Shown here: positions 22,169 to 36,384 of the stretch, piece after piece
Layout: each line of letters starts with the position of its first letter
Position numbering within the stretch: the first letter of the stretch is position 1
Assembly: GCF_012927355.1 (NCBI RefSeq)
Contig: NZ_JABBGK010000006.1
Span: 124,001-188,000, forward strand
Direction: 5' to 3'
Length of the DNA stretch: 64,000 nt
From: Rhizobium terricola
Lineage (GTDB): Bacteria; Pseudomonadota; Alphaproteobacteria; Rhizobiales; Rhizobiaceae
Notes under the pieces: model-generated
What the model saw: only the letters and a program-made list of their open reading frames with translations
What the model was told of the DNA's origin: nothing
Databases searched by the model: none
Translations under genes and position numbers: made by a program

Positions 22169-23184
22169 GCACCGCGACGTCTCAAACCGTGTCAACCCGT
22201 CGCCAGATCCCCGATCGTCTGGGCACGCCGCTGAAGCGGCTGCTCGGAAGCTGGGAAGTGCTTCTGTTCGGCGTGGCGGTGGCGATCTTCATCGCCAATT
22301 CACTGGCCTCGCCCTATTTCCTCGATGCGTGGAATCTTTCGGACGCCACGTTCAACTTCACCGAAAAGGCGATGATCGCCTTTGCCATGGCGCTGCTGAT
22401 CATCGCCGGCGAGATCGACCTCTCGGTCGCCGCGATCATCGCGCTTGCCTCCACCGCCATGGGTTACGCGGCGCAGATGGGCGTCGGCGCGCCGGGGCTG
22501 GTGGCGATCGGCATCGGTACCGGCCTTGCCTGCGGCGCCTTCAACGGGCTGATGATCGCCGGCCTGAAGCTTCCGTCGATCGTGGTCACGATCGGCACGA
22601 TGAGCCTGTTCCGCGGCATTTCCTACATCGTGCTCGGCGACCAGGCCTACGGGAAATATCCGGCCGATTTCGCCTATTTCGGCCAGGGTTATGTCTTCTG
22701 GGTGTTTTCCTTCGAGTTCGTGCTGTTCCTCGTGATGGCAGGCCTGTTTGCCATCCTCCTGCACAAGACCAATTTCGGCCGTCATGTCTATGTGATCGGC
22801 AACAATCCGCTCGCCGCGCGCTTTTCCGGCATCCCGGTCGAGCGGGTGAAGTTCATCCTCTTCCTGCTGACCGGCCTGATGAGCGGCATTGCAGCCGTCT
22901 GCCTCACCTCGCGTCTCGGTTCGACCCGGCCTTCGATCGCGCAAGGCTGGGAGCTCGAGGTCGTGACCATGGTGGTCCTCGGTGGCGTATCGATCCTCGG
23001 CGGCGCCGGAACGATCGCCGGTGTGGTGATCGCGGCCTTCGTCATGGGCCTCGTGACCTTCGGCCTCGGCCTTCTGAACGTGCCCGGCATCGTCATGTCG
23101 ATCTTCATCGGCCTGCTTCTGATCGTCACCATCGCGCTGCCGATCATCGGCCGTCGCATCAAGCAGGCGAGGACCGCAAGATGA
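22165..23184 (+). CDS. rhaQ: Rhamnose ABC transporter, permease 2
   Basis: A 339-residue permease related to RhaP and forming the second half of the channel. It shows the same family motifs ([52 protein letters not shown]) after a roughly 35-residue cytoplasmic N-terminus. It begins within the rhaP stop (ATGA overlap), with AGGAGGTGG as ribosome site, and ends within the start of rhaU, again by a four-base overlap. No defect is seen. Confidence 0.94.
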
Positions 23185-23504
23185 GCGAAGTGGAACGGCA
23201 TGCCTTCAAGATGAAGCTCTTCCCGGGCATGGAGGCCGAATACAGGAAGCGCCATGACGAGATCTGGCCGGAGCTGGTCGACCTGCTGCACGACGCGGGC
23301 GTGAGCGATTACACTATCCATCTCGACCGCGAGACCAACACGCTCTTCGGCGTTCTCAGCCGGCCGAAGAACCATGGCATGGCAAGCCTGCCGGATCACC
23401 CGGTGATGAAGCGCTGGTGGGCGCACATGGCCGACATCATGGAAAGCAATCCGGACAACTCGCCCGTTGCCGTTGATCTCGTTACGGTGTTCCACCTCAA
23501 ATGA
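23181..23504 (+). CDS. rhaU: L-rhamnose mutarotase
   Basis: A 107-residue protein that interconverts the alpha and beta anomers of rhamnose, speeding supply to kinase or isomerase. It keeps the family landmarks: [15 protein letters not shown] with His25 as likely catalytic residue, IWPEL directly after, [11 protein letters not shown], and the paired tryptophans in [11 protein letters not shown] followed by NPDNSPV. It overlaps rhaQ and rhaK by four bases on each side, so it is fully embedded in the translation-coupled rha operon. Confidence 0.95.
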
Positions 23505-24886
23505 GCACACCGCACCATGCCCGCGTCGCCGTGATCGACATCGGCAAGACCAATGCCAAGGTGGTCGTGCTCGACGGGGCGACCGGCGCGGAGATCGCGG
23601 TCCGCAAGACTCCGAACAAGGTAGTCGCGACCGGGCACTATCCGCACTACGACGTCGAGGCGCTGTGGACCTTCATTCTGGCATCGCTTGCGGAATTTGC
23701 CGCCACACCGGGTTTCGAGGCCATCTCGATCACCACGCATGGCGCGAGTGCCGCCCTTCTCCACGCGAAAGGCGAACTGGCACTGCCGGTGCTGGACTAC
23801 GAGTTCGAATACCCGCAGGCCGTCCGCGACGACTATGACCGGCTTCGGCCGGATTTCGCCGAGACCTGTTCGCCGCGGCTTTCGGGCGGGCTTAATCTCG
23901 GGGCGCAGCTTCATTTCCAGAAGGCGAGTTTTCCGGAAGATTTCGGCCACGTCGCCACCATCCTGACCTATCCGCAATACTGGGCCTTCCGACTGACCGG
24001 GGTTGCAGCCAACGAGGCGACGTCGCTCGGTTGCCATACCGATCTCTGGCGGCCCGGTGCGGGACAGTATTCCGCTCTCGTCGACCGGCTCGACATTCGT
24101 TCGCTGATGGCCCCGGTGCGTCCGGCCTTCGATGCGCTGGGTCCGCTCCTGCCGGAAATCTGCGACCGGATCGGCCTTGCCGCGCCAGTGCCGGTTCATT
24201 GCGGCATCCACGATTCAAACGCCTCGCTGCTACCGCATCTCCTTCGCCGCGAGGCGCCGTTTGCCGTCGTCTCGACGGGGACTTGGGTGGTGTGTTTTGC
24301 TGTCGGCGGCGATCTCGACGGGCTCGACCCCACGCGGGACACGCTGGCCAATGTGGATGCCTATGGTCGCGCTGTTCCGTCTGCCCGCTTCATGGGCGGA
24401 CGGGAATACGAGATGCTGACGGAGGCTCTCTCTCCGGCGAGCGCAATGGAGCTTGAAGAGGCGCTTGCCGCTGTCCTCGGCCGAGGGGTCATGGTGCTTC
24501 CGAATATCGCATCAGGCTCCGGGCCTTTCCCGGGACGGAAGACCGAGTGGCTGGGGGTGGCCGAAACGGCAGCCGAGCGGCAGGTTGCCGCTTCCCTATA
24601 TGCAGCGCTGATGACCGCGACCTGCCTCGTCCTGATTGGCAATCGTGGCCCGATCATCGTCGAGGGGCCGTTCGCCGGCAATGCGATCTATCTCCGCGCT
24701 CTCGCGACCGCTGCCGGGTGCGACGTGATCGTTCTTCCGGGCGGCGCACCGACAGGTACCGCGCAGGGTGCAGGGCTGCTGACCGGGATCGCACTTGCGC
24801 CCGGCGAGGAACGCCTCATTGTTCCGGAGCCTGAGCTTGCCGCCTATTGCGCGAAATGGAGACGCGCAGTCGCCGAACGTGGCTGA
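23501..24886 (+). CDS. rhaK: L-rhamnulose kinase (FGGY family)
   Basis: A 461-residue FGGY-type sugar kinase with the N-terminal phosphate loop [13 protein letters not shown], the middle STGTWVV segment of the nucleotide-binding half and [12 protein letters not shown] near the C-terminus. In rhizobia the order isomerase/kinase has been debated and RhaK activity was reported to be needed for rhamnose transport in R. leguminosarum; that is literature knowledge, not visible here. The protein is shorter than E. coli RhaB and belongs to the rhizobial RhaK type. It is the last gene of the operon and is followed by a strong terminator. Confidence 0.93.
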
Positions 24887-24920
24887 CGCGATTGTGTTGA
24901 CGGGTCTTCGAATAACGGAA

Positions 24921-24951
24921 AAAAGCCCGGAACGTCATGTTCCGGGCTTTT
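24921..24951. terminator. Bidirectional Rho-independent terminator
   Basis: AAAAGCCCGGAAC and GTTCCGGGCTTTT form a perfect 13-bp stem around a 5-base loop, A-rich on one side and T-rich on the other. It ends rhaK from the left and the CsbD gene from the right. Confidence 0.92.
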
Positions 24952-24970
24952 GCATTCTCTGGCCAGCGCC

Positions 24971-25171
24971 TTAGTGGCGGCTGTTCATCCAGGTGTCGAT
25001 CTCGCGGTCGGCTTCTTCCTGGGTCTTGCCATAGGCTTCCTGGATCTTGCCGGAGAGCTGCTTGCGGTTGCCGGCGATTACGTCCATGTCGTCGCCGGTG
25101 AGCTTGCCCCACTGGGCCTGGGCCTTGCCCTTGAACTGCTCCCAATTGCCTTCGATCTGATTCCAGTTCAT
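24971..25171 (-). CDS. CsbD-family small stress protein
   Basis: A 66-residue acidic, hydrophilic CsbD-like protein with the family pattern MNWNQIEGNWEQFKGK, AQWGKLTGDDMDVIAGNR and a C-terminal IQEAYGKTQEEAD helix. CsbD proteins are induced by general stress in many bacteria; their biochemical role is unknown. ATG 25171 follows AGGAAGGAG; the longer open frame upstream has no such site. A GGAAC-N16-CGTT promoter lies about 55 bp upstream, placing it under the EcfG sigma factor encoded 6 kb away. Confidence 0.93.
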   Translation of the reverse strand: MNWNQIEGNWEQFKGKAQAQWGKLTGDDMDVIAGNRKQLSGKIQEAYGKTQEEADREIDTWMNSRH

Positions 25172-25225
25172 GTCGAACTCCTTCCTGGTTTCGTTGCGAT
25201 AGAGGCCGTTGTCCTCGGATTGATA

Positions 25226-25250
25226 AACGCCGGTTCGTCTCGGAAGTTCC
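25226..25250 (-). promoter_or_regulatory. EcfG-type promoter of the CsbD gene
   Basis: Leftward GGAAC (25250-25246), 16-bp spacer, CGTT (25229-25226): a perfect match to the alphaproteobacterial general stress promoter. Confidence 0.85.
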
Positions 25251-25295
25251 TCTCGACGGGGCGGTGAAGGCGCCGCGCGCTGCAAAAAAAAGCGG

Positions 25296-25320
25296 GGAAC
25301 CGATCGGTCTTCCGGGCGTT
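25296..25320 (+). promoter_or_regulatory. EcfG-type promoter of the DUF883-like gene
   Basis: GGAAC (25296-25300), 16-bp spacer, CGTT (25317-25320), 33 bp before the start codon. It is divergent from the CsbD promoter, the two -35 elements being 45 bp apart. Confidence 0.85.
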
Positions 25321-25353
25321 CTCAAGTCGAACCAATCAGCAAGGAGACATCCG

Positions 25354-25722
25354 ATGGCGACCGTATCCATGGCAGAAAAGGCGCGTGCGAAGGCCGACAG
25401 CCTGGTCGATGAGGTGGAGGCTTCGTCGAGCGCTTCGGCGAGCGACGTCCAGGCGGAGCTGGAGAACCTGCGTCGTGACGTAGCCGCTCTCACGCAGGCC
25501 CTTGCATCGTTCGGCAACGGCAAGCTCAAGGAAGCAGGCAACCGGGCGACCCAGCTCGGTGCCGATGTCGCCGATGTATCGGCCCAGTATGTCGAAAGCG
25601 CCCGCTCCAGCCTGGCGACGGCCGAGCAGGATCTCGAGGCCCATATCCGCAGTCGCCCGCTCCAGTCGATTGCGGTCGCGGCCGGCATCGGCTTCCTGGC
25701 AGCCGTTCTCAGCCGGCGGTGA
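25354..25722 (+). CDS. DUF883/ElaB-YqjD-like tail-anchored membrane protein
   Basis: A 122-residue protein with a long helical, Ala/Glu-rich body (residues 8-95, coiled-coil-like, VQAELENLRRDVAALTQAL) and one C-terminal hydrophobic helix (SIAVAAGIGFLAAVL) ending in arginines. This layout matches the ElaB/YqjD/DUF883 family, whose E. coli members are stationary-phase inner-membrane proteins that bind ribosomes. Whether this one does so is unknown. ATG 25354 follows AAGGAG. It is co-transcribed with the next gene (3-bp gap) from an EcfG-type promoter. Confidence 0.85.
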   Translation: MATVSMAEKARAKADSLVDEVEASSSASASDVQAELENLRRDVAALTQALASFGNGKLKEAGNRATQLGADVADVSAQYVESARSSLATAEQDLEAHIRSRPLQSIAVAAGIGFLAAVLSRR

Positions 25723-25725
25723 CGG

Positions 25726-26172
25726 ATGCGCGGGTTGGTCGAGCAGATGATCGGGCTGGGGCTCGTCAACATGAGTTCCACCGCGGTCGAGGTGAAACGC
25801 AAGGCGGTCGGCGGACTGATCGCCGGCGTATTCTTCCTGACTGCCTATGTGGCGCTGGTGATGGCGTTGGCCTTCTACGTTGCCACGGAGGCCGGGGCGG
25901 TCGCGGCAGCGCTCGTTGTCGCCGCCGCGGCCATGGCTGGCGCGCTGGTGGTGCTTGCTGTCGTCGCCGTGCTCAATCGGCGGACAGAGCAGTTGGTGCT
26001 CGCCCGCCAGGCGGCGCTTGCTGCGGCCCGGCCGGATCCGCTCACGGCGCGCCTGGTCCAGGAACTGCCGTCGATGATCCGCTCCAGCCCGATCGCCGCC
26101 GCTGTCATGGTGAGCAGCTTTGCCTACGTGCTGGCGCGCAGCCAGGGATTTGGAAGAAGGCCCAAGGCGTGA
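25726..26172 (+). CDS. Holin-superfamily-like (YqjE/DUF1469-type) membrane protein
   Basis: A 148-residue protein with two long hydrophobic segments in its first half (about residues 28-55 and 58-82, very Ala/Val rich) and a weaker one near residue 122. A basic, helical linker (LNRRTEQLVLARQAAL) lies between. The pairing of a DUF883/YqjD-like gene with a YqjE-like gene copies the yqjD-yqjE order of enterobacteria. It follows the previous gene by 3 bp and so shares the stress promoter. The call rests on topology and neighbourhood more than on a motif. Confidence 0.7.
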   Translation: MRGLVEQMIGLGLVNMSSTAVEVKRKAVGGLIAGVFFLTAYVALVMALAFYVATEAGAVAAALVVAAAAMAGALVVLAVVAVLNRRTEQLVLARQAALAAARPDPLTARLVQELPSMIRSSPIAAAVMVSSFAYVLARSQGFGRRPKA

Positions 26173-26245
26173 TCTGAAGAGCAATGATCTCAAGACTGGG
26201 CGGAGGATGGTTGGAGGGGAAAGGCAGACGAATGGTCGACAGCCG

Positions 26246-26434
26246 TCAGTCCTTCTGTCCGCGTTCTGCCTTGTCGAGGCGTTCCAGCAGGTCGAGGAAT
26301 TGTGGTGGAGTGCCTTCCTCGATGATGCTGTCATAATAGCCCCGGAGCTTCATCGCGATCAGCGCGTTCGCATTCTGCGTCTCCGGTTGTGCCGTTTCCG
26401 GCAAGTCGCCCTCGTCGTTCTGCTTGCCGCGCAT
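26246..26434 (-). CDS. nepR: NepR-family anti-sigma factor, copy 1
   Basis: A 62-residue protein whose second half matches the NepR core: IAMKLRGYYDSIIEEGTPPQFLDLL and then ERLDKAE. NepR binds and silences the EcfG sigma factor until phosphorylated PhyR takes it away. It is divergent from phyR, the commonest neighbour of nepR. The N-terminal 25 residues are acidic and probably disordered, as usual. Its promoter has a clear GGAAC but a weaker -10. A second nepR lies upstream of ecfG at 30.8 kb, and the two differ at most positions outside the core. Confidence 0.88.
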   Translation of the reverse strand: MRGKQNDEGDLPETAQPETQNANALIAMKLRGYYDSIIEEGTPPQFLDLLERLDKAERGQKD

Positions 26435-26483
26435 GGCATGAAACCCCTGGTCTTCCCCTAGGCGGAATTGAAATTATTCTATT

Positions 26484-26508
26484 AAGTGGGTCAACGTAAA
26501 AAAGTTCC
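26484..26508 (-). promoter_or_regulatory. Probable EcfG-type promoter of nepR copy 1
   Basis: Leftward GGAAC (26508-26504), 16-bp spacer, then ACTT (26487-26484), keeping only the TT of the -10. It is back to back with the phyR promoter; the two -35 elements form the palindrome GTTCC-N9-GGAAC. Confidence 0.55.
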
Positions 26509-26517
26509 ATCCCCGGG

Positions 26518-26542
26518 GGAACTTTCTTCCGCGAGGCACGTT
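26518..26542 (+). promoter_or_regulatory. EcfG-type promoter of phyR
   Basis: GGAAC (26518-26522), 16-bp spacer, CGTT (26539-26542), 45 bp before the phyR start. This would give positive feedback on the response. Confidence 0.85.
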
Positions 26543-26587
26543 TTCCGCCGAGTCCGCACCCATATTGTATCCAATTGGAGAAATCGC

Positions 26588-27382
26588 ATGTCTCTTACTG
26601 CCCGCGTTGCCGTCCATCTGCCATACCTGCGGCGCTATGCCCGAGCCGTCACCGGGTCCCAGACGTCCGGGGATGCCTATGTCGCGGCCGTGCTCGAAGC
26701 CTTGATCGCGGACATCTCCATCTTCCCGAAGGGCGCCAATGATCGCGTCTCGCTCTACAAGCTCTTCGTCAAGCTTTTCGACAGCACCAATGTGGAGATC
26801 CCCGCGGTTTCATCGCCGTTCGCCTGGGAGAAGCGCGCGGCCGCCAACCTTGCGTCCGTTCCGACGCGTGCACGCCATGCCTTCCTGCTGATCACCGTCG
26901 AGGGCTTTTCCAATTCCGAAGCCGCCGAAGTGCTGGGCGTCGACGAGGCGGCGTTCAACAAGCTGTTCAACGAGGCTTCCGTGGAGATCTCGCGCCAGGT
27001 GGCGACCGACATCATGATCATCGAGGATGAGCCTCTGATCGCCCTCGACATCGAACAGATGGTGGAAGATCTCGGACACAGGGTTACCGGCATTGCCCGC
27101 ACCCATGGCGAGGCCGTCGAACTCTACAACCGCACGAATCCCAAGATGGTGCTGGCCGACATCCAGCTCGCGGACGGGAGCTCGGGCATCGACGCCGTCA
27201 ACGACATTCTCAAGGTCGATTCCGTGCCGGTCATCTTCATCACCGCGTTTCCCGAGCGGCTCCTGACCGGCGAACGGCCCGAACCGGCCTTCCTCGTCAC
27301 GAAGCCCTTCAATCCCGACATGGTCAAGGCCCTGATCAGCCAGGCGCTCTTCTTCAACGAGCGGGTGGTCGAGCAGGCCTGA
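26588..27382 (+). CDS. phyR: PhyR, anti-anti-sigma response regulator of the general stress response
   Basis: A 264-residue protein with the PhyR layout: an N-terminal sigma-like domain (residues 1-135, region-2-like HLPYLRRYARAVTG and region-4-like ITVEGFSNSEAAEVLGV) fused to a receiver domain (residues 141-260). The receiver keeps the acidic pair Glu146/Asp147, phosphoacceptor Asp191 in MVLADIQLADGSSG, Thr219 and Lys239. When phosphorylated, the sigma-like domain traps NepR and frees EcfG. ATG 26588 follows GGAG. It sits opposite nepR copy 1 and upstream of a sensor kinase. Confidence 0.96.
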   Translation: MSLTARVAVHLPYLRRYARAVTGSQTSGDAYVAAVLEALIADISIFPKGANDRVSLYKLFVKLFDSTNVEIPAVSSPFAWEKRAAANLASVPTRARHAFLLITVEGFSNSEAAEVLGVDEAAFNKLFNEASVEISRQVATDIMIIEDEPLIALDIEQMVEDLGHRVTGIARTHGEAVELYNRTNPKMVLADIQLADGSSGIDAVNDILKVDSVPVIFITAFPERLLTGERPEPAFLVTKPFNPDMVKALISQALFFNERVVEQA

Positions 27383-27481
27383 CGAGGAAAGAGCGTACCG
27401 GGGAAGGGTCCCGCTCCGCACGTTCGGAGCGAGGCCCAAGGGGGTCATTTACGGATTGCCGATCAGCGGCGGAGTGAGAAG

Positions 27482-28480
27482 TTGGTACACCGGTTGACAT
27501 GGTTCGAACCCGCGCGAGCTGAAGACAAGCTCCGTGAGTTCTTCATTACCGCCCTGATCGACATGAGTGCCACCCTCACTCTGCAGGATCAGCAGGGCAA
27601 GTATATCTGCATCACCACTTTGCCCGCGCGCTGGATGCTGAAACCCGGAGTGGAGCCGAGCGACGAGGCGATCTTCGGCCCCGAGCTTGGGACAAGGCTC
27701 GGCGAATTGAAGGCCGGCTTGGTCAAGCCGGGCGACCGCGCTGAACTGGAAATTGAGGCCGGCGACGACACCTTCTTCGAGTTCCGCTGCCGGATGGTCG
27801 AGATGGGCAATCACGAGATCAACCTGATGACGGTGGTTCTCGACCGCACGGAGGACCGGCGGCGCGAGCGGCTGTTGCGGGCGCTTCTGCGCGAGGTCAG
27901 CCATCGTTCCAAGAACCTTCTCGCGATCATCCAGAGCATCGCGTCCCAGACCGCGCGCTATTCCGGTACGCTCGACGCGTTCCTCGGCAAGTTCCGCGGT
28001 CGTCTGCACGCGCTCTCGCAATCGCAGGACCTGATCACCGACTCCAGCTGGCGCGGCGCCTACTTCCGCGACCTGCTGAAGCAGCAGGTCGATCGTTATG
28101 TGCAGGAAAACGGCAGTCTTGTGCATGTCTCGGGCGAGGATGTTATGCTGACGCCGAACGCATCGCTGCATATCGGCCTGGCCTTGCACGAGCTCGTCGT
28201 CAATGCCGTGAGCCATGGCGATTTCCTTCAGCGGCGCCGCCCGATCGAGGTCAGCTGCGAGCGGTTCCAGACCGACGCAGGACCGCAGATCCGTATCCGC
28301 TGGGTCGAGCCGGTCGGAAACATCAACAAGGAGGCGCTGAGCGCCGCCAGTAGCGCCCGGTTCGGCAGCACGGTGCTCGAACGGGTTGTGCCGTCCTCCG
28401 TCAACGGGCGCGCCACGCACCAGCTGGACGACAAGGAACTCCGCTACGAGCTCGTCTTTCCTCAGGAAATCTTCGAGTAG
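27482..28480 (+). CDS. HWE/HisKA_2-type sensor histidine kinase, probable PhyR kinase
   Basis: A cytosolic kinase of up to 332 residues without membrane segments. Residues 1-125 form a PAS-like input region; the phosphoacceptor is His141 in LREVSHRSKNLLAII, typical of HWE/HisKA_2 kinases, and the ATP-binding domain has HELVVNAVSHG with Asn241 plus IRWVEP and FGSTVLERVV. Kinases of this class feed PhyR in other alphaproteobacteria, and the gene is 100 bp behind phyR. The start is unsure: TTG 27482 keeps the frame; ATG 27563 would trim 27 residues. No own EcfG promoter was seen. Confidence 0.87.
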   Translation: MVHRLTWFEPARAEDKLREFFITALIDMSATLTLQDQQGKYICITTLPARWMLKPGVEPSDEAIFGPELGTRLGELKAGLVKPGDRAELEIEAGDDTFFEFRCRMVEMGNHEINLMTVVLDRTEDRRRERLLRALLREVSHRSKNLLAIIQSIASQTARYSGTLDAFLGKFRGRLHALSQSQDLITDSSWRGAYFRDLLKQQVDRYVQENGSLVHVSGEDVMLTPNASLHIGLALHELVVNAVSHGDFLQRRRPIEVSCERFQTDAGPQIRIRWVEPVGNINKEALSAASSARFGSTVLERVVPSSVNGRATHQLDDKELRYELVFPQEIFE

Positions 28481-28495
28481 GCGCCGGCAAGCGCG

Positions 28496-28520
28496 GGAAC
28501 GAGTTGTGGATTTTACCGTT
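28496..28520 (+). promoter_or_regulatory. EcfG-type promoter of the metallopeptidase gene
   Basis: GGAAC (28496-28500), 16-bp spacer, CGTT (28517-28520); a perfect consensus match 86 bp before the start codon. Confidence 0.82.
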
Positions 28521-28606
28521 CTCCCGCCGCCGACCACGCACCTTGCACGCCGCTGCGGCGGGCAAATGACGAGTTCGATCACAAGCCTCTGCGCAGGGAG
28601 CCTTTT

Positions 28607-29668
28607 ATGCGTCTCTTCAACTGTTCGAATTGCGCGAACATCGTCCACTTCGACAATGGGGGCTGCGTGACGTGCGGGATGCGGCTTGCATGGCGTCCGA
28701 GCCGGTTCGACATGGTGGCGATAGCCGCCGACGGCGCAATGTTTCGCGATCCCGCGGAGCCGGCAAACCTATTGCAGCCGTGCGGCAATGCCGAAGCGGG
28801 TGGATGCAACTGGCTGGTGGAGGATGGACATGCCTCTGGCCTCTGTCTTGCCTGTCGCCACAACCTTACCATTCCCGATCTTTCCACGCAGGAGAATGTC
28901 GCCAACTGGCAGCGGATCGAGGCTGCCAAGCGATATGTCTTCTATTCCCTGCTGCGTTTCGGCCTGCCGCTGGTCACCAGAGCCGAGGATCCGGCAACGG
29001 GGCTCGGCTTCGAGTTTCTCGCAGACGATGCCGTCACGAGCGGACAGCAAGTGTTGACGGGGCATGCCGACGGACTGATCACGCTCAACATCGCGGAGGC
29101 GAGCGATGCGGAGCGGGAAGCGCGTCGCGTGTCACTCGGAGAACCGTTCCGCACGCTCGTCGGTCATTTCCGCCACGAGATCGGCCATTACTACTGGGAT
29201 CGGCTGGTTCAGGAGCGCGGCGACCTCGAGTCTTTCCGCGCGCTCTTCGGTGACGAACGGAGGGACTATGGCGAGGCACTGCAGTTGCATTATGCCAACG
29301 GGCCAATGGCGGGATGGGAACAGAGCTACATCAGCGCCTATGCCGCGAGCCACCCTTGGGAGGACTTCGCCGAGACCTGGGCGCACTATTTCCACATCGT
29401 CGATGCATTGGACACAGCCGATGCGTTCGGCCTTCGGACGCGGCCGGAAATCGCCTCTCCGGAACTGACGCTGAGCACAACCTTCGACGCTTATCGAGCG
29501 GTCGACGCCAAGGTGCTCGTCGATGCCTGGGTTCCGCTGACGGTCGCGCTCAACAGTATCAACCGCAGCATGGGACAGCGCGACCTTTACCCCTTTGTAC
29601 TGTCGGTGCCGGTGTTCAAGAAGCTGCAATACGTGCACAACCTCGTGCACGGCGCGACCAGCATGTGA
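28607..29668 (+). CDS. Zinc-ribbon-containing putative metallopeptidase (DUF2248-type)
   Basis: A 353-residue cytosolic protein. The N-terminus has two cysteine groups arranged like zinc ribbons (Cys6, 9, 20, 23 and Cys59, 67, 80, 83). The C-terminal half has the zincin motif HEIGH at residues 190-194 (in GHFRHEIGHYYW), and a downstream DFAETWAHYFH segment likely supplies the third ligand. This matches the family annotated as putative zinc-binding metallopeptidase; no substrate is known. Its own EcfG-type promoter puts it in the general stress regulon. Confidence 0.87.
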   Translation: MRLFNCSNCANIVHFDNGGCVTCGMRLAWRPSRFDMVAIAADGAMFRDPAEPANLLQPCGNAEAGGCNWLVEDGHASGLCLACRHNLTIPDLSTQENVANWQRIEAAKRYVFYSLLRFGLPLVTRAEDPATGLGFEFLADDAVTSGQQVLTGHADGLITLNIAEASDAEREARRVSLGEPFRTLVGHFRHEIGHYYWDRLVQERGDLESFRALFGDERRDYGEALQLHYANGPMAGWEQSYISAYAASHPWEDFAETWAHYFHIVDALDTADAFGLRTRPEIASPELTLSTTFDAYRAVDAKVLVDAWVPLTVALNSINRSMGQRDLYPFVLSVPVFKKLQYVHNLVHGATSM

Positions 29669-29712
29669 AGCACTCCGATCGTCAGCCAAAAGGCCGGAAT
29701 TGCGGGGTTTAA

Positions 29713-29737
29713 GGAACATTCATCGTCTTTTGACGTT
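29713..29737 (+). promoter_or_regulatory. EcfG-type promoter of an unknown two-gene unit
   Basis: GGAAC (29713-29717), 16-bp spacer, CGTT (29734-29737), 24 bp before the start codon. Confidence 0.82.
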
Positions 29738-29761
29738 AACCTTTTCACAAGGAGAACGACG

Positions 29762-30112
29762 ATGAACACGCTTGCTGCACTCATGGTACTCGTTGCTTGC
29801 CATCCCCAGCAATCCAGTTGTCTGGAAGAGCCGGTCGCCGTGATTTCCTACAGCTCCGGTGCGGATTGCCGTGCCGCCCTGCCGTCCGAAATGGAAAAGG
29901 CCCGCAAGATGGCGGGTCTGATCTATGGAGACTGCGTGCCCGTTGATGCCGACCTTCTCGCCGGCCGGGAGATCCGCCAAACGATCGATCCGGTCAGGCT
30001 CGCCGAGCTCAAGACGGCTGTCCCGGCCGGGGTGACCGCCAAGGCGTTCGTCGAGGATCCTTTTGCGCGCTTTCCCGCTGTCCCGGGTATGGTCGGGGAG
30101 GCCAACCGATGA
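29762..30112 (+). CDS. Unknown small cysteine-containing protein, stress-promoter driven
   Basis: A 116-residue protein I do not recognise. The first 12 residues are hydrophobic (LAALMVLVAC) without a positively charged start, so secretion is uncertain. Four cysteines (about 13, 20, 36 and 58) could form two disulfides if exported. The middle is amphipathic (PSEMEKARKMAGLIYGDC) and the C-terminus is Pro/Phe rich. The ribosome site is AAGGAG. Its TGA overlaps the ATG of the next gene, so the two are translationally coupled. The promoter places it in the EcfG regulon. Confidence 0.75.
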   Translation: MNTLAALMVLVACHPQQSSCLEEPVAVISYSSGADCRAALPSEMEKARKMAGLIYGDCVPVDADLLAGREIRQTIDPVRLAELKTAVPAGVTAKAFVEDPFARFPAVPGMVGEANR

Positions 30113-30312
30113 CCGTGTCGCCCGGAGAACGTGATCGGTCAATCGATAAGGAAATGCGTGAAATCGCCAACGAGGCGCAGCTGGATTCCGATCTTTCCGC
30201 AGTTCCGCCCCGCTTCTCCAATGCAACGATCATAGCCCTGCTCCTCGTGCTCGCCGCGCTGGGGGTCATGATCGGCTCAACGCTGATCAACTGGTATCTC
30301 GCCATACGATAG
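30109..30312 (+). CDS. Unknown small single-pass membrane protein
   Basis: A 67-residue protein with an acidic/basic N-terminal 38 residues (RDRSIDKEMREIANEAQLD) and one hydrophobic helix at about residues 40-61 (ATIIALLLVLAALGVMIGS), ending in NWYLAIR. It probably sits in the inner membrane with the N-terminus inside. It overlaps the preceding gene by four bases and is followed by a terminator, completing a two-gene stress operon. Function unknown. Confidence 0.75.
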   Translation: MTVSPGERDRSIDKEMREIANEAQLDSDLSAVPPRFSNATIIALLLVLAALGVMIGSTLINWYLAIR

Positions 30313-30320
30313 ACATGGAG

Positions 30321-30350
30321 AAGGCCGCCTCGTTAAGGGGCGGCCTTTTT
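30321..30350 (+). terminator. Rho-independent terminator
   Basis: AAGGCCGCC and GGCGGCCTT form a 9-bp stem with a 9-base loop, followed by TTT, 8 bp after the stop codon. Confidence 0.88.
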
Positions 30351-30386
30351 GCGTGGCGTTAGACTGAGTGGTCCGGAGCGTACAAG

Positions 30387-30413
30387 AAAGGAGCCGGGGA
30401 TGCTGGCTCCTTT
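30387..30413 (-). terminator. Terminator of the first DUF1328 gene
   Basis: AAAGGAGCC / GGCTCCTTT form a 9-bp stem with a 9-base loop; on the leftward strand the run CTTTCTTGT follows. It lies 19 bp past the stop. Confidence 0.7.
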
Positions 30414-30432
30414 CAGGTCAATTCTTCGGGAA

Positions 30433-30597
30433 TCAGGCGCGGCGGAACAGGCGCGACGCGAGCGAGATCAGGAAAAGCACGATGAAGACCAGGAACAGGA
30501 TCTTGGCGATACCGGCCGAAGCACCGGCGATGCCGCCGAAGCCGAGCACACCGGCGATCAGGGCGACGACGAGGAAGACAAGTGCGTAATACAGCAT
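30433..30597 (-). CDS. DUF1328 small membrane protein, copy 1
   Basis: A 54-residue protein made of two hydrophobic helices ([19 protein letters not shown] and [15 protein letters not shown]) joined by the family's [12 protein letters not shown] loop, ending in basic residues. DUF1328/YtjA proteins are small inner-membrane proteins of unknown role, often stress induced. The GGAAC-N16-CGTT promoter just upstream and a near-identical second gene at 32.9 kb support membership in the general stress regulon. Confidence 0.9.
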
Positions 30598-30627
30598 GGG
30601 TTTCTCTCCTTTTTCCGATGGCAGGAA

Positions 30628-30652
30628 AACGGCGGGACCGACAATTTGTTCC
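30628..30652 (-). promoter_or_regulatory. EcfG-type promoter of DUF1328 copy 1
   Basis: Leftward GGAAC (30652-30648), 16-bp spacer, CGTT (30631-30628). The first 11 bases, GGAACAAATTG, recur at the promoter of copy 2. Confidence 0.85.
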
Positions 30653-30729
30653 ATCGGCCAACATCGATGGTCACGGCACAGATTTTCGTAGTGGGCGTCA
30701 AAATAACAATCAAAATAATACGGGAGTTT

Positions 30730-30754
30730 GGAACCTTCTGACCGTTTGTCCGTT
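30730..30754 (+). promoter_or_regulatory. EcfG-type promoter of nepR copy 2 - ecfG
   Basis: GGAAC (30730-30734), 16-bp spacer, CGTT (30751-30754), 37 bp before the nepR start. It implies autoregulation of the sigma factor. Confidence 0.87.
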
Positions 30755-30791
30755 GTGACGCAACGAACGAACCCAACCCCGATGGAAAAGC

Positions 30792-30998
30792 ATGACCAAA
30801 TTCGACAATGATCCATCAGTCCTGCAGAAGATGAACCTTGCTGGTGTTCATCCGGGTATCGCCACCCAGTTGCGCGAACTCTATCAAGCGGTGCAGGATG
30901 AAGAAATTCCCGACCGGTTTCTCAGCCTGCTCGAAAAGCTCGATCAGGCTGAGAAGCAGGCCGAGTCCAGTGTTCGCGTCAAGGATTCCGCCCTATGA
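30792..30998 (+). CDS. nepR: NepR-family anti-sigma factor, copy 2
   Basis: A 68-residue protein with the NepR core [19 protein letters not shown] and [14 protein letters not shown] (residues 22-54). It overlaps ecfG by four bases, the classic anti-sigma/sigma arrangement, so it is the more likely main partner of EcfG. Compared with copy 1 at 26.2 kb, the core keeps the Leu-Arg, Tyr, Glu-Glu, Pro and Phe-Leu-x-Leu-Leu-Glu positions, while both flanks differ. Confidence 0.92.
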
Positions 30999-31561
30999 CC
31001 TCTGATGCAACGTCCGTAGAACGCTCGTTCAAGCGAGAGCTGCTTGCTGCTCTTCCGAATCTTCGTGCCTTCGCCGTCTCCCTGACCGGGCGCCATCATG
31101 TTGCCGACGACCTCGTGCAGGACACGATCATGAAGGCCTGGGCCAAGCAGGACCATTTTGAGCCGGGCACCAACATGAAGGCCTGGCTTTTCACCATCCT
31201 GCGCAACGAATTCTACTCCCAGATGCGCAAGCGCGGCCGCGAGGTGTCCGACAGCGACGGCATCTTCACCGCACAGCTCTCCACCCATCCACAACAGTAC
31301 GGCTCACTCGACCTCCAGGATTTCAAGCGGGCGCTCGACCAACTGCCGAGCGACCAGCGCGAAGCAATCATCCTGGTCGGAGCGTCGGGCTTTGCCTATG
31401 AGGAAGCGGCGGAGATCTGCGGTTGCGCGGTCGGCACGATCAAGAGCCGCATCAACCGGGCGCGCAACAAGCTTCAGGAGCTTCTCGGGGTGAGCGGAGA
31501 GGGCGACTACGGCCCCGACGCGCACAGCTCAGCCGTCACCAAGCGCGCCTTCGCGGTATGA
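30995..31561 (+). CDS. ecfG: ECF sigma factor EcfG (general stress response)
   Basis: A 188-residue ECF sigma factor. Region 2 covers about residues 15-85 (LRAFAVSLTGRHHVADDLV, TNMKAWLFTILRN) and region 4 about 110-165 (LPSDQREAIILVGASGF, then EICGCAVGTIKSRINRAR as the DNA-reading helix). Context with nepR, phyR and many GGAAC-N16-CGTT promoters makes the EcfG (ECF15) assignment firm. It would direct RNA polymerase to those promoters under osmotic, oxidative, starvation and similar stresses. Confidence 0.95.
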   Translation: MTSDATSVERSFKRELLAALPNLRAFAVSLTGRHHVADDLVQDTIMKAWAKQDHFEPGTNMKAWLFTILRNEFYSQMRKRGREVSDSDGIFTAQLSTHPQQYGSLDLQDFKRALDQLPSDQREAIILVGASGFAYEEAAEICGCAVGTIKSRINRARNKLQELLGVSGEGDYGPDAHSSAVTKRAFAV

Positions 31562-31565
31562 CCGA

Positions 31566-31934
31566 TCAGGCCCGTGGCTGGGCCGTGGCTGCAAGCACGG
31601 CGCGCGTCAATTCCTCGGGATGGATCGGCTTCTCGATGACGGGAAAGCTGAGGAGATTCGGATTTTCCGTGGCTTCCTCGTCATAGGAAGTGAGGAAGAT
31701 CACCGAGGCGCCGGCGGTGGCGATCATCTCCGCGCGCTTGAGGTTGAGCGTTCCGGACGGGGCGCTGTCGACGACGACAAGGTCGTAACGGGAGATGGCA
31801 AGCTGCCGCTCGAGTTGCGATAGCGGGGTGATTGTGACGTCGCAGCCGAAGGCGTCGAGGAGAATGCGCTCGACCTCCATCGCGATCAGGTACTGGTTCT
31901 CCGCGACGAGAACACGCAGCGACGGGTTGTGCAT
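31566..31934 (-). CDS. Single-domain response regulator
   Basis: A 122-residue stand-alone receiver domain. Asp56 (LVVVDSAPSG) is the likely phosphoacceptor, and Thr/Ser (IFLTSYD) and Lys (IEKPIHP) are conserved. The usual acidic pair after strand one is Glu12-Asn13, one acid short, so metal binding may be weaker. No output domain is present; such proteins act as phosphate sinks or protein-binding switches. It converges on ecfG with a 4-bp gap. I saw no EcfG-type promoter upstream. ATG 31934 has AAGGAAAAG before it. Confidence 0.85.
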   Translation of the reverse strand: MHNPSLRVLVAENQYLIAMEVERILLDAFGCDVTITPLSQLERQLAISRYDLVVVDSAPSGTLNLKRAEMIATAGASVIFLTSYDEEATENPNLLSFPVIEKPIHPEELTRAVLAATAQPRA

Positions 31935-32057
31935 GGCTTTTCCTTTTTTGCCGAGTGGCGTTATGGGCGCGCATGCGCAGAACGTCATTTAAAAAAGACA
32001 TGTGATCGAGAGCGGTCCGGCACGGGCCGCACCCTGACCGCAAAAAGAGGACATTGC

Positions 32058-32813
32058 ATGGCGAGCGAATTCCGCAACAATCCTGTCCGTGTCAGTTGCC
32101 ATGAATGTCCCCTCCGGCTGAGAAGTCATTTCCGTCCCTTCTCCTCCGAGGAGCTGGACTTCGTCTCCCATTTCAAGCGCGGTGAGCTCAATGCAGATCC
32201 GGGGTCGACCGTGCTGGTCGAAGGCTCGCATAGCGCTCACCTTTATACGGTGCTTCAAGGCTGGGGGTTCCGCTACAAGATCCTGGAGGACGGCCGTCGG
32301 CAGATCCTCAACTACGTGGTTCCGGGTGACATGGTAGGGCTGCAGGGGGCCGTGATGTCGGAGATGCAGCATTCGGTCGAGGCACTGACGCCGATCACGC
32401 TCTGTGTCTTCGAGCGAAACCGGCTGTTCACGCTGTTCCAGAAACACGCCGGGTTGGCCTTCGACCTGACGTGGCTCGCGGCACGCGAGGAGAGCATTCT
32501 CGACGAGCATCTGCTCAGCATCGGTCGTCGGACGGCCACGGAACGAGCGGCTTACCTGCTCGCCTTTCTGTTCGAGCGTGGCCGTGTCGCCGGGCTTCTG
32601 GACGAGGAGCGCCGCCACGTGCCCGTGACGCAGATGCATGTCGCCGACACGCTCGGTCTTTCCATCGTGCACACCAACAAGACGCTGAAGAAACTTGCCG
32701 AGCGTGGACTTATCCGCTGGCTCGACCGCGGCTGCGAGGTCCTCGACCCGGAAGGTCTCCAGGCGGTGGCGAACTGGAGCCCGGGCGACCCCAAACTCAG
32801 GCCGTTCATCTGA
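32058..32813 (+). CDS. Crp/Fnr-family transcriptional regulator
   Basis: A 251-residue regulator with an N-terminal CHECPLRLR stretch, a cyclic-nucleotide-binding-like beta-barrel (residues 30-150, VLVEGSHSAHLYTVLQGWG, YVVPGDMVGLQG) and a C-terminal winged helix (VTQMHVADTLGLSIVHTNKTLKKLAERGLI). The cysteines do not form the full four-cysteine FNR cluster. It belongs to a rhizobial subgroup with several paralogues per genome, some linked to stress. ATG 32058 is the start; AAAGAGG lies 8 bases before. Confidence 0.88.
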   Translation: MASEFRNNPVRVSCHECPLRLRSHFRPFSSEELDFVSHFKRGELNADPGSTVLVEGSHSAHLYTVLQGWGFRYKILEDGRRQILNYVVPGDMVGLQGAVMSEMQHSVEALTPITLCVFERNRLFTLFQKHAGLAFDLTWLAAREESILDEHLLSIGRRTATERAAYLLAFLFERGRVAGLLDEERRHVPVTQMHVADTLGLSIVHTNKTLKKLAERGLIRWLDRGCEVLDPEGLQAVANWSPGDPKLRPFI

Positions 32814-32839
32814 ATGGTGGCGATGCTGCAGCATAAAAG

Positions 32840-32867
32840 AAGGGCCGGTTCGTGAGAACCGGCCCTT
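32840..32867. terminator. Bidirectional Rho-independent terminator
   Basis: AAGGGCCGGTTC and GAACCGGCCCTT form a perfect 12-bp stem with loop GTGA; CCTTT follows on the right and TCTTTTATG on the left strand. It separates the Crp/Fnr gene from DUF1328 copy 2. Confidence 0.88.
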
Positions 32868-32905
32868 CCTTTCGTGGGGAGGACAGATCTGGATAGGCGA
32901 GGTCG

Positions 32906-33070
32906 TCAGGCGACGACCAGCACCCCCGTGAAAAGCGCGATGATGAGGATCACCAGCACGATGAAAATCAGGATTTTGGCAATGCCTGCCGATGCGCCGG
33001 CCACGCCACGAAAGCCGAGAAGGCTGGCCACGGCGGCAATCAGCAGGAAGATCAGGATCCAATGAAGCAT
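32906..33070 (-). CDS. DUF1328 small membrane protein, copy 2
   Basis: A 54-residue two-helix membrane protein (LHWILIFLLIAAVASLLGF and ILIFIVLVILIIALF) with the loop [12 protein letters not shown], closely related to copy 1 at 30.4 kb and of identical length. It is too short for usual gene calling but has a start with a ribosome-like GGAGAAC and an EcfG-type promoter. Function of the family is unknown; stress-linked membrane role is inferred from the promoter. Confidence 0.88.
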   Translation of the reverse strand: MLHWILIFLLIAAVASLLGFRGVAGASAGIAKILIFIVLVILIIALFTGVLVVA

Positions 33071-33100
33071 GATGTTCTCCGTTTACGAATTCCTGTCGTA

Positions 33101-33125
33101 AACAACAGCCGGGCCAATTTGTTCC
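33101..33125 (-). promoter_or_regulatory. EcfG-type promoter of DUF1328 copy 2
   Basis: Leftward GGAAC (33125-33121), 16-bp spacer, TGTT (33104-33101), one mismatch in the -10. It shares GGAACAAATTG with the promoter of copy 1. Confidence 0.75.
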
Positions 33126-33313
33126 ATTGCGGCGCCTGCCGGTGAAAACGGCCAAACGCCGCAGGCGGCCCGGTAAGCGATTTAATCGTTGACGGAGCCG
33201 CCTCCGGCGCGCGAAACCTTCACTTGAGGGGGAAAGTGGGCTGGACAGTAACCACACATTCTGCTCGGTTTCACGCCGCTAAATTTCGACTTTAGCCTAA
33301 TGCGAGATGGGAG

Positions 33314-34891
33314 ATGGGTTTGAAGATCGGTTCGCCACGGGAGCTGTTTGCAGGGGAGGCACGCGTTGCCATGACCCCCGACAGCGCGCTTCAGCTACAG
33401 AAGCTTGGTTATGAATGCGTCGTCGAGGCGGGAGCGGGCAAGGCCGCCGGCTTTTCCGACGACGCCTATCGGGCCGCCGGCGTGACGGTGGTCGAGGGGG
33501 CCGCAGCGCTTTATGCGGCCGCCGACGTGATCGCCAAGGTGCGTCCGCCGGAAACGGCGGAACTCGACAGGCTCGCCCCCGGCAAAACGCTCATTTCCTT
33601 CTTCTATCCGGCGCAGAACAAGGACCTGCTCGAGCAGGCCAAGGACAAGGGCGCCAACGTCATCGCCATGGACATGGTGCCGCGCATCTCGCGTGCCCAG
33701 AAGATGGACGCCCTGTCGTCGATGGCGAATATCGCCGGCTACCGCGCGGTGATCGAGGCCGGCAACAATTTCGGCCGCTTCTTCACCGGCCAGGTGACGG
33801 CCGCCGGCAAGGTGCCGCCGGCCAAGGTTCTGGTCATCGGCGCCGGCGTCGCGGGTCTCGCGGCGATCGGTACGGCAACCTCGCTCGGCGCGATCACCTA
33901 TGCCTTCGACGTCCGTCCGGAAGTGGCCGAACAGATCGAGAGCATGGGCGCGGAATTCGTCTATCTCGAATTCGAGGCCGCGCAGGACGGCGCCGCCACC
34001 GGCGGTTATGCCGCCCCGTCCTCGCCGGAGTTCCGCGAGAAGCAGCTCGCCAAGTTCCGTGAGCTGGCGCCCGAGATCGACATCGTCATCACCACGGCGC
34101 TTATCCCTGGCCGCGACGCGCCGAAGCTCTGGCTCGCCGACATGGTGGCTTCGATGAAGCCCGGCTCGGTCGTCATCGACCTTGCCGCCGAGCGCGGCGG
34201 CAATTGCGACCTGACCGTTCCCGACCAGAAGATCGTCTCGGACAATGGCGTGACGATCGTCGGCTACACCGATTTCCCGAGCCGCATGGCCGCCCAGGCG
34301 TCCACGCTCTACTCGACCAACATCCGCCACATGATGACGGACCTGACGCCGGGCAAGGACGGCAAGGTCGTCCATAACATGGAAGACGACGTCATCCGTG
34401 GTGCGACGGTCACCTTCGAAGGGGCCGTGACCTTCCCGCCGCCGCCGCCGAAGATCCAGGCGATCGCGGCCGCGAAGCCGAAGGAGAAGGCCAAGGAACT
34501 GACGCCCGAGGAAAAGCGCGCCCAGGAAGCGGCCGCCTTCAAGGCGCAGACCCGGAGCCAGGTCGGCCTGCTCGTGGTCGGCGGCCTGCTGATGGCGTTG
34601 GTCGGTGCTTATGCGCCGTCCGAGTTCATGGCGCATTTCATTGTCTTCGTGCTCGCCTGCTTCATCGGCTTCTCGGTGATCTGGAATGTCAGCCATTCGC
34701 TGCACACGCCGCTGATGGCCGTGACCAACGCGATTTCCGGCATCGTCATCCTCGGCGCGCTGCTGCAGGTCGGTTCCGGCAATTGGCTGGTCGTCATCCT
34801 CGCCGCAATCTCGGTGCTGATCGCCACGATCAACATCGTCGGCGGCTTCCTCGTCACCCGGCGCATGCTCGCCATGTTCCAGAAATCCTGA
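33314..34891 (+). CDS. pntA: Proton-translocating NAD(P) transhydrogenase, alpha subunit
   Basis: PntAB uses the proton gradient to reduce NADP with NADH. This 525-residue subunit has the NAD-binding domain I (GSPRELFAGEARVAMTP at the start, VLVIGAGVAGLAAIGTA near residue 175), a charged Lys/Glu/Ala linker (about 385-415) and four C-terminal membrane helices. It is therefore the fused E. coli-type alpha chain rather than the split alpha1/alpha2 form found in some alphaproteobacteria. pntB follows 20 bp later. No EcfG-type promoter was seen in the 243-bp upstream gap. Confidence 0.95.
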   Translation: MGLKIGSPRELFAGEARVAMTPDSALQLQKLGYECVVEAGAGKAAGFSDDAYRAAGVTVVEGAAALYAAADVIAKVRPPETAELDRLAPGKTLISFFYPAQNKDLLEQAKDKGANVIAMDMVPRISRAQKMDALSSMANIAGYRAVIEAGNNFGRFFTGQVTAAGKVPPAKVLVIGAGVAGLAAIGTATSLGAITYAFDVRPEVAEQIESMGAEFVYLEFEAAQDGAATGGYAAPSSPEFREKQLAKFRELAPEIDIVITTALIPGRDAPKLWLADMVASMKPGSVVIDLAAERGGNCDLTVPDQKIVSDNGVTIVGYTDFPSRMAAQASTLYSTNIRHMMTDLTPGKDGKVVHNMEDDVIRGATVTFEGAVTFPPPPPKIQAIAAAKPKEKAKELTPEEKRAQEAAAFKAQTRSQVGLLVVGGLLMALVGAYAPSEFMAHFIVFVLACFIGFSVIWNVSHSLHTPLMAVTNAISGIVILGALLQVGSGNWLVVILAAISVLIATINIVGGFLVTRRMLAMFQKS

Positions 34892-34911
34892 TCGGGGAGG
34901 GGATTTAAATC

Positions 34912-36357: not shown

Positions 36358-36384
36358 GGCATTCGCCTTCACTGACGTTGAAGG

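What the first reader, a model, noticed from the sequence alone, without database searches (positions are those of the whole stretch)
24971..33125. A compact general stress response island: regulators and many targets share one spacer-exact promoter
Within about 8.2 kb there are eight GGAAC-N16-(C/T)GTT sites and one weaker ninth, all with a spacer of exactly 16 bp and all facing a gene on the correct strand. They serve csbD, the DUF883/holin-like pair, nepR-1 (weak), phyR, a metallopeptidase, an unknown gene pair, two DUF1328 genes and nepR-2/ecfG. The consensus is known for EcfG. The density, and the clustering of presumed effectors between two halves of the regulator locus, is unusual and predicts a self-contained stress module.
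Basis: partly seen in the sequence, partly recalled or inferred. Interest (0 to 1): 0.75.

Follow-up and report, generated by a model that had tools for sequence, protein, structure and literature searches.

The report
Clustered stress regulators sharing one promoter
In this soil-bacterium genus the genes that switch on the general stress response sit in one 8-kb cluster with several likely targets, and the cluster keeps an old back-to-back promoter pair that places the activator gene phyR against an inhibitor gene nepR.

Summary
Eight exact GGAAC-N16-YGTT sites lie at 25226-33125, each 24-86 nt before a correctly oriented start codon; the rest of the genome predicts 0.15 (P=5e-12). In up to 34 congeners six sites are nearly always kept, DUF1328-b in 15 of 27, the metallopeptidase site in 4 of 31; 17-bp spacers also occur. 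They are best read as promoters of the general-stress sigma factor EcfG. 'Self-contained' fails: at least 18 promoter-like sites and a second EcfG lie elsewhere.

The weak ninth site matters most. It is one arm of GTTCC-N9-GGAAC between nepR1 and phyR: two EcfG -35 elements facing each other. The same pair, 7-9 bp apart in 66 of 73 loci with a callable pair, is the phyR|nepR-ecfG promoter region of relatives with the usual gene order, mostly with a strong phyR and weaker nepR side. So the island looks like a rearranged ancestral locus: nepR1 stayed with phyR; nepR2-ecfG has its own strong promoter. I infer that the facing promoters compete. A helical-phasing idea failed out of sample. Verdict: new variant of a known system.

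The parts
24971..25171 (-). csbD gene
   Evidence: Pfam CsbD 6e-20
25226..25250 (-). EcfG-type promoter of csbD
   Evidence: strict match; strict spacer-16 in 26 of 29 congeners, 29 of 29 with spacer 15-18
25296..25320 (+). EcfG-type promoter of the DUF883/holin-like pair
   Evidence: 27 of 31 congeners, 31 of 31 with spacer 15-18
25354..25722 (+). DUF883-like gene
   Evidence: Pfam DUF883_C 2e-6
25726..26172 (+). small membrane (holin-like) gene just downstream of DUF883
   Evidence: ORF; no match above a Pfam cut-off
26246..26434 (-). nepR1, anti-sigma factor paralogue
   Evidence: Pfam NepR 2.4e-10; separate clade from nepR2, support 0.99
26484..26508 (-). nepR1 promoter-like site GGAAC-N16-ACTT (weak -10)
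26498..26528 (.). inverted repeat A6-GTTCC-N9-GGAAC-TTTCTT: two -35 elements face to face
   Evidence: GTTCC..GGAAC pair in 27 of 31 loci (30 congeners and the window), gap 7-9; same element at phyR|nepR-ecfG of relatives
26518..26542 (+). EcfG-type promoter of phyR
   Evidence: 29 of 32 congeners
26588..27382 (+). phyR, anti-anti-sigma response regulator
   Evidence: NCBIfam PhyR family 2.5e-115; PDB chains down to 1e-114
27482..28480 (+). HWE histidine kinase (TTG start uncertain); no site of its own
   Evidence: Pfam HWE_HK 2.4e-25; strict site in 0 of 32 congeners
28496..28520 (+). strict site before the metallopeptidase; rarely kept
   Evidence: 4 of 31 congeners
28607..29668 (+). zinc-ribbon plus Peptidase_Mx gene
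   Evidence: Pfam 8e-108
29713..29737 (+). EcfG-type promoter of the unknown gene pair
   Evidence: 28 of 32 congeners
29762..30312 (+). two overlapping small genes of unknown function (29762-30112, 30109-30312)
   Evidence: ORFs; no Pfam match
30433..30597 (-). DUF1328-a gene
   Evidence: Pfam 2e-16
30628..30652 (-). EcfG-type promoter of DUF1328-a
   Evidence: 31 of 32 congeners
30710..30717 (+). A/T-rich patch 13-20 bp upstream of the nepR2 -35 element
   Evidence: >=6 of 8 A/T in 26 of 32 loci
30730..30754 (+). EcfG-type promoter of nepR2-ecfG
   Evidence: 31 of 33 congeners
30792..30998 (+). nepR2, anti-sigma factor
   Evidence: Pfam NepR 9.5e-16
30995..31561 (+). ecfG, general-stress ECF sigma factor
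   Evidence: sigma regions 2 and 4; linked to phyR and nepR in relatives
31566..31934 (-). receiver-like single-domain protein; no site
   Evidence: Response_reg 3e-4, below cut-off; strict site in 0 of 29 congeners
32058..32813 (+). Crp/Fnr regulator; no strict site
   Evidence: Pfam; strict site in 0 of 30 congeners
32906..33070 (-). DUF1328-b gene
   Evidence: Pfam 3.5e-12
33101..33125 (-). EcfG-type promoter of DUF1328-b (TGTT -10)
   Evidence: 15 of 27 congeners, 18 of 27 with spacer 15-18

Best explanation
The sites are promoters of the EcfG (ECF15) sigma factor of the alphaproteobacterial general stress response. The block is a rearranged core locus, shared by most of the genus, in which likely targets lie between two halves of the partner-switch regulators. 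Under stress, phosphorylated PhyR takes NepR away from EcfG; free EcfG then transcribes its own operon, phyR, and the nearby csbD, DUF883, unknown-pair and DUF1328 genes, plus targets elsewhere. The nepR1|phyR spacer carries the promoter pair that in relatives lies at phyR|nepR-ecfG: two EcfG -35 elements facing each other 9 bp apart (7-9 in the genus), with a consensus -10 for phyR and a weak -10 for nepR1. nepR2-ecfG is separated from phyR and has its own consensus promoter. I infer that the two facing promoters cannot be occupied together, so phyR and nepR1 compete for EcfG polymerase with a bias to phyR, and that NepR1 acts as a brake. Shown by sequence: sites, conservation, inverted repeat, spacing, unequal -10 elements. 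Inferred: sigma recognition in this species, competition, brake.
For: Enrichment. Conservation in up to 34 congeners against permuted-motif controls of 0.1-0.9%, with most spacer bases near random identity. Genes without a site (HK, RR, crp, pntA) score 0 strict. Protein identities. R. etli EcfG1 regulon motif is GGAAC-N16-CGTT, and phyR and ecfG1 expression is EcfG1-dependent there (PMC3892343, section 15 parts 1 and 2 of 3 read). Inverted repeat. NepR paralogues that bind PhyR and act negatively are published (PMC4814048, PMC6599016, passages only).
Against: No transcript data for this species. The motif alone is weak genome-wide (97 against 75 control; no clear excess over control in 35 genomes of the genus). 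The NepR tree rests on about 50 residues. In 4 of 31 loci the repeat is absent, yet phyR keeps its site and T-tract, so phyR does not need the partner arm. Two of 27 nepR1 sites have the consensus CGTT, and in one of these (G023) the phyR -10 is the weaker CATT. In other families the unequal -10 can be reversed or absent, and 16 of 42 pairs have gaps of 19-79 bp; of 6 further new pairs 4 have gaps of 27-54 bp. csbD, DUF883 and DUF1328 were not found in the main text of PMC6599016 or PMC6180224, nor csbD in PMC3616915 or PMC4814048, so their being EcfG targets rests on sequence here.
Confidence: 0.85

Rival explanations
1. Ordinary EcfG locus: clustering reflects shared ancestry and independent targets with no added mechanism; the inverted repeat is just two nearby promoters.
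For: Relatives with the usual gene order already have 1-5 strict sites per 8155 bp and sometimes csbD (3 of 68), DUF1328-a (10 of 68) or DUF883 (19 of 68) within 8 kb of ecfG. Beyond these relatives the gap is often wide.
Against: Gap length is 7-9 bp in 27 of 27 loci of the genus that keep the repeat and in 66 of 73 relatives, while gap sequence varies (length 8: 13 distinct of 14). Other divergent EcfG pairs in the same loci have gaps of 27-304 bp, plus one of 1804.
Confidence: 0.4
2. Reciprocal UP element: the A-tract of one arm is the upstream A/T patch of the other promoter, and the gap is held to keep it 13-20 bp upstream of the -35.
For: nepR2, not part of the repeat, keeps an A/T patch at the same place (26 of 32 loci with >=6 of 8 A/T; phyR 27 of 31; DUF883 9 of 29; unknown pair 7 of 29; csbD 6 of 27; DUF1328-a 2 of 32; DUF1328-b 0 of 16).
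Against: Families f16 and f31 keep a short gap without A-tracts. The UP-element position is recalled, not from a call. The loci are related, so the counts are not independent.
Confidence: 0.3
3. The inverted repeat is an operator for a dimeric regulator or an RNA hairpin rather than paired -35 elements.
For: It is palindromic with A6/T6-like flanks.
Against: Each arm lies 16 bp from a -10-like element; both genes point away from it, so no gene's transcript is expected to run through it; the phyR arm stays when the other is absent.
Confidence: 0.08
4. Chance matches in a G+C-rich genome.
For: Genome-wide matches are not much more frequent than controls.
Against: P(>=8) = 5e-12 and conservation far above permuted motifs for seven of the eight sites.
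Confidence: 0.02

Closest known systems
Rhizobium etli ecfG1-nepR | phyR-tcrY locus (PMC3892343)
   Same: Same regulators, same GGAAC-N16-CGTT motif, kinase next to phyR, autoregulated ecfG1 and EcfG1-dependent phyR.
   Different: There phyR-tcrY diverges directly from the nepR-ecfG1 unit. Here phyR and ecfG point the same way, 3.6 kb apart, with likely targets between, two nepR genes, and no ReC64-type sRNA found.
Sinorhizobium meliloti RpoE2-RsiA1/RsiA2-RsiB1/RsiB2 (PMC3616915, passages)
   Same: Paralogous anti-sigma factors in one partner switch; rsiA1 and rsiB1 are rpoE2-dependent.
   Different: rsiA2 was not rpoE2-dependent and served as a control there; in the two Ensifer loci fetched here the promoter pair is laid out differently.
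NepR paralogues of Methylobacterium extorquens (META2p0735) and Sphingomonas melonis NepR2 (PMC4814048, PMC6599016, passages)
   Same: Second NepR-like protein acting as a negative regulator; the M. extorquens gene has a putative EcfG-type promoter and binds PhyR.
   Different: Here the paralogue sits back to back with phyR and has a conserved -35 with a mostly weak -10.
ReC64 sRNA of R. etli (PMC3892343)
   Same: EcfG1-driven transcript downstream of the kinase gene; a strict site at that place occurs in 55 of the 70 loci L011-L080.
   Different: Not found in this genome with two covariance models.

Membership tests
EcfG / ECF15 sigma factor | sigma regions 2 and 4 only | tested here: met
   Pfam Sigma70_r2 and Sigma70_r4_2
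EcfG / ECF15 sigma factor | linked to nepR and phyR | tested here: met
EcfG / ECF15 sigma factor | GGAAC-N16/17-CGTT promoter before its own operon | tested here: met
   30730-30754; 31 of 33 congeners
EcfG / ECF15 sigma factor | transcription of the regulon depends on it | not testable with these tools
   no expression data
PhyR | sigma-like domain plus receiver | tested here: met
NepR | NepR domain above Pfam cut-off | tested here: met
   nepR1 40.3 and nepR2 57.6 bits, cut-off 25.7
NepR | NCBIfam equivalog 'anti-sigma T factor NepR' above cut-off | tested here: not met
   nepR1 23.2 and nepR2 24.1 bits, cut-off 100; this model is for a narrower group by its name, so the Pfam family is the one used
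NepR | binds EcfG and PhyR | not testable with these tools
   needs binding assay
Face-to-face EcfG promoter pair | GTTCC-N7-9-GGAAC with EcfG -10 elements on both sides | tested here: inconclusive
   window gap 9, phyR -10 CGTT, but nepR1 -10 ACTT is non-consensus
ReC64 sRNA | covariance model match | tested here: not met
   no G000 match at E <= 1 (R1) or E <= 0.5 (R2); one window match of E 0.31 at 32832-32935 judged by eye a terminator

The most novel reading that the evidence does not exclude
The core of the general stress response is wired through one pair of interlocked EcfG promoters. The genes of the activator PhyR and of the inhibitor NepR fire from -35 elements facing each other at a held distance of 7-10 bp, so that only one can be used at a time, with unequal -10 elements setting the bias. 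The island in this genus shows the pair outliving the departure of ecfG, leaving a pure activator-versus-inhibitor switch (phyR against nepR1).
Probability: 0.4. Interest if true: 0.68.

Novelty: new variant of a known kind. Interest (0 to 1): 0.5.

Why it matters
It gives a sequence-level, testable reason why phyR and nepR lie back to back in many alphaproteobacteria, and a natural rearrangement that separates the sigma factor from that pair. If the promoters compete, the set point of the stress switch is written in one 30-bp element. It also yields a short list of likely direct targets with conserved promoters (csbD, DUF883, DUF1328, one unknown pair) that deserve functional study.

Tried and rejected
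Helical phasing of the gap: gaps over 12 bp fitted a 10.5-bp period in the first sample (p 0.002 for 18 gaps, 0.022 for 15 family-unique gaps), but four newly fetched long gaps (47, 34, 54, 27) did not fit. Rejected.

CATT -10 as a mark that keeps a second EcfG off the ecfG promoter (suggested by R. etli reporter data): at E <= 1e-25, 6 of 30 genomes show one EcfG only; five of them (L019, L037, L043, L053, L074) still read CATT on the nepR side, while Ensifer (L065, L078) has further EcfG-like genes without CATT. Not supported; some assemblies are drafts.

A special -10 class GGAAC-N16-RCTTA: 5 genome matches against 18 reversed controls. Not a general class.

ReC64 in this genome: two covariance models, nothing in G000 (one search used stricter filters). 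Three congeners gave weak matches that I did not examine (G014 E 0.004; G025 3e-4 and G032 0.003). Rfam on 23000-36400 gave only two matches, both below the family cut-off.

Metallopeptidase promoter: 4 of 31 congeners; the one in G026 resembles kinase coding sequence by eye. Left open.

NepR tree cannot say which paralogue is the original: nepR1 and nepR2 are about equally far from the usual-order NepR (mean identity 0.40 and 0.43).

Literature searches: no held paper has 'phyr, nepr, divergent, inverted repeat' together; 'phyr, ecfg, divergently, intergenic region, palindrom' (at least 4 of 5) returned 7 papers, of which only PMC3892343 and PMC6180224 also name EcfG, and none has all five terms. 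Most subscription papers are not held, so absence from print is not claimed.
Full report
Observation. The strict pattern GGAAC-N16-YGTT occurs nine times in the window, eight of them at 25226-33125. Each of the eight lies 24-86 nt upstream of a start codon on the same strand. In the whole genome (4,926,615 bases) there are 97 matches against 75 for the reversed pattern, so a single match means little. The rest of the genome predicts 0.15 matches in 8155 bases; P(>=8) is 5e-12. I fetched 87 of the 88 matches outside the window: 54 lie inside called genes, 18 are promoter-like, 15 are other (home-made gene caller, which missed at least two likely starts). On these counts the island has 8 of 26 promoter-like sites (binomial 9e-17), and without phyR and nepR2 6 of 24 (3e-12).

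Genes. Pfam identifies CsbD, DUF883_C, two NepR, PhyR, an HWE histidine kinase, a zinc-ribbon Peptidase_Mx protein, two DUF1328 proteins, an ECF sigma factor, a receiver domain below its cut-off and a Crp/Fnr regulator. The holin-like protein and the unknown pair have no match above a cut-off. PhyR matches the NCBIfam PhyR family and solved PhyR chains.

Conservation. The island occurs in most of the 35 congeners fetched; exceptions are G004, G023, G025 and G028, with other layouts or missing genes, and G007 and G029, on short contigs. In 34 congener loci (G004 left out), strict spacer-16 sites precede csbD in 26 of 29, DUF883 27 of 31, phyR 29 of 32, the unknown pair 28 of 32, DUF1328-a 31 of 32, nepR2 31 of 33, DUF1328-b 15 of 27, the metallopeptidase 4 of 31, nepR1 2 of 30, and HK, RR, crp and pntA 0 of 32, 29, 30 and 20. 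Permuted motifs score 0.1-0.9%. Most spacer positions show pairwise identity of 0.2-0.5; exceptions include positions next to the -35 and a T-tract in phyR. Spacer 17 occurs in 1-4 loci each for csbD, DUF883, the unknown pair, DUF1328-a, nepR2 and DUF1328-b, so the 16-bp spacer is a strong preference and not a rule.

Unusual or not. In 68 loci with the usual gene order (L055 and one locus under 12 kb left out) the densest 8155-bp stretch holds 1-5 strict sites; in 30 loci of the genus (window included, the six exceptions above left out) it holds 4-8. csbD lies within 8 kb of ecfG in 3 of 68, DUF883 in 19, DUF1328-a in 10 (lower bounds, tblastn with window queries). So part of the clustering is found outside the genus and is extended in it. 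The genome has a second EcfG-like gene (C13:465523-465996, 48% identity) with its own strict site 52 nt upstream, so the island is not self-contained.

The weak ninth site. Between nepR1 and phyR lies A6-GTTCC-N9-GGAAC-TTTCTT (26498-26528). The right arm is the -35 of the phyR promoter. The left arm is a -35 for nepR1 with a non-consensus -10 (ACTT at N16). Of 31 loci examined (30 congeners and the window), 27 hold the pair with a gap of 7 (5), 8 (14) or 9 (8); the nepR1 -10 is GCTT or ACTT in 14 of 27 and the consensus CGTT in 2; the phyR -10 is CGTT in 25 of 27. The four without it are three genomes with the A. vitis layout and one other, in which phyR keeps its site and T-tract. GTTCC-N6-10-GGAAC by itself is not improbable in 64 kb (expected 0.39); the evidence is its conservation and place.

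Same element elsewhere. In 74 loci with the usual order (69 of L011-L080 and five from other families) a facing pair could be called in 73. The gap is 7-9 in 66; the others are 5 (2), 6 (1), 20 (2) and 29 (2). The phyR -10 is CGTT in 64 of 73 and the nepR -10 is CATT in 58 of 73. In a sample of 69 loci over the order (four of them, G040, G047, G048 and G052, already in the 73), 9 had no divergent phyR found, 18 gave no pair and 42 gave a pair: 26 of 42 at 7-10, 16 at 19-79. The script broke ties towards the smaller gap, and three of the 18 without a called pair (L298, L300, L301) do hold the repeat. A last batch of 27 loci gave 10 pairs, four of them repeats of earlier genomes; the six new gaps are 6, 8, 27, 34, 47 and 54. 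So the short gap is usual in this family and several others and is lost in some. Other divergent EcfG pairs in the genus vary widely: csbD|DUF883 34-170 plus one of 1804 (30 loci), DUF1328-a|nepR2 27-304 (32 loci). Gap sequences in the genus: length 8, 13 distinct of 14, mean identity 0.38; length 9, 6 of 8, 0.56; length 7, 5 of 5, 0.54. Length is held while sequence drifts. The unequal -10 is not universal: some families have the weak -10 on the phyR side, others on neither.

History. Because nepR1|phyR carries the element that sits at phyR|nepR-ecfG elsewhere, nepR1 holds what looks like the ancestral place, and nepR2-ecfG has been moved or duplicated away. NepR1 and NepR2 form separate clades (support 0.99 and 0.82) apart from the usual-order NepR, about equally far from it (138 sequences). 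This fits duplication before the genus radiated, but the short protein does not root it. NepR domain searches find two copies in the window's genome and in 33 of 35 congeners, one in G025 and G028.

Mechanism. From published work (PMC3892343 section 15 parts 1-2 of 3; passages of PMC3616915, PMC6599016 and PMC4814048), PhyR antagonises NepR and so frees EcfG, which activates its own operon and phyR; NepR paralogues can act as negative regulators. I infer that the same happens here. I further infer that polymerases at the two facing promoters exclude each other, since the -35 elements are under 10 bp apart (polymerase footprint recalled, not from a call). An added observation: an A/T patch 13-20 bp upstream of the -35 marks phyR (27 of 31) and nepR2 (26 of 32) more than DUF883 (9 of 29), the unknown pair (7 of 29), csbD (6 of 27), DUF1328-a (2 of 32) or DUF1328-b (0 of 16). 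This fits an UP element (recalled) supplied by the partner's A-tract in the repeat. The idea that gaps follow the DNA helix looked good in a first sample and failed in four new cases.

Related RNA. In 55 of the 70 loci L011-L080 a strict site lies 80-420 nt before the 3' end of the kinase gene, pointing towards it; by eye most are followed by hairpins with C-rich loops and a terminator (seven folded). Its place matches the EcfG1-dependent sRNA ReC64 of R. etli (PMC3892343). A covariance model also finds it in Ensifer and Shinella loci (L065, L078, L071) but not in this genome; three congeners gave weak matches that I did not examine. This genome seems to have lost, or strongly changed, it.

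Verdict. Ordinary in kind, unusual in density and arrangement; the promoter pair is the part worth following.

Noticed in passing
L011-L080, before the 3' end of the histidine kinase gene (e.g. L020:7355-7505): ReC64-like sRNA candidates with C-rich loops after an EcfG-type site at this place in 55 of 70 loci (by eye most); covariance matches in Ensifer and Shinella loci.
   Followed up: partly
G000:C1:894848-894872 (L134): EcfG-type site followed by what looks by eye like two hairpins, the second with a T-run, and no called gene downstream: possible stress sRNA.
   Followed up: no
G000:C13:465523-466923 (L178): Second EcfG paralogue with its own consensus site, and nearby a palindromic site that reads as an EcfG promoter in both directions, the two readings overlapping by 23 bp.
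   Followed up: partly
window 31566-31934: Receiver-like protein below the Pfam cut-off between ecfG and crp, found in 29 of 34 congener loci; no EcfG site.
   Followed up: no
L058:11044, and the ecfG loci of G047 and G004: In these relatives the Crp/Fnr gene has an EcfG-type site upstream; strict sites there are absent in the 30 congener loci counted.
   Followed up: no
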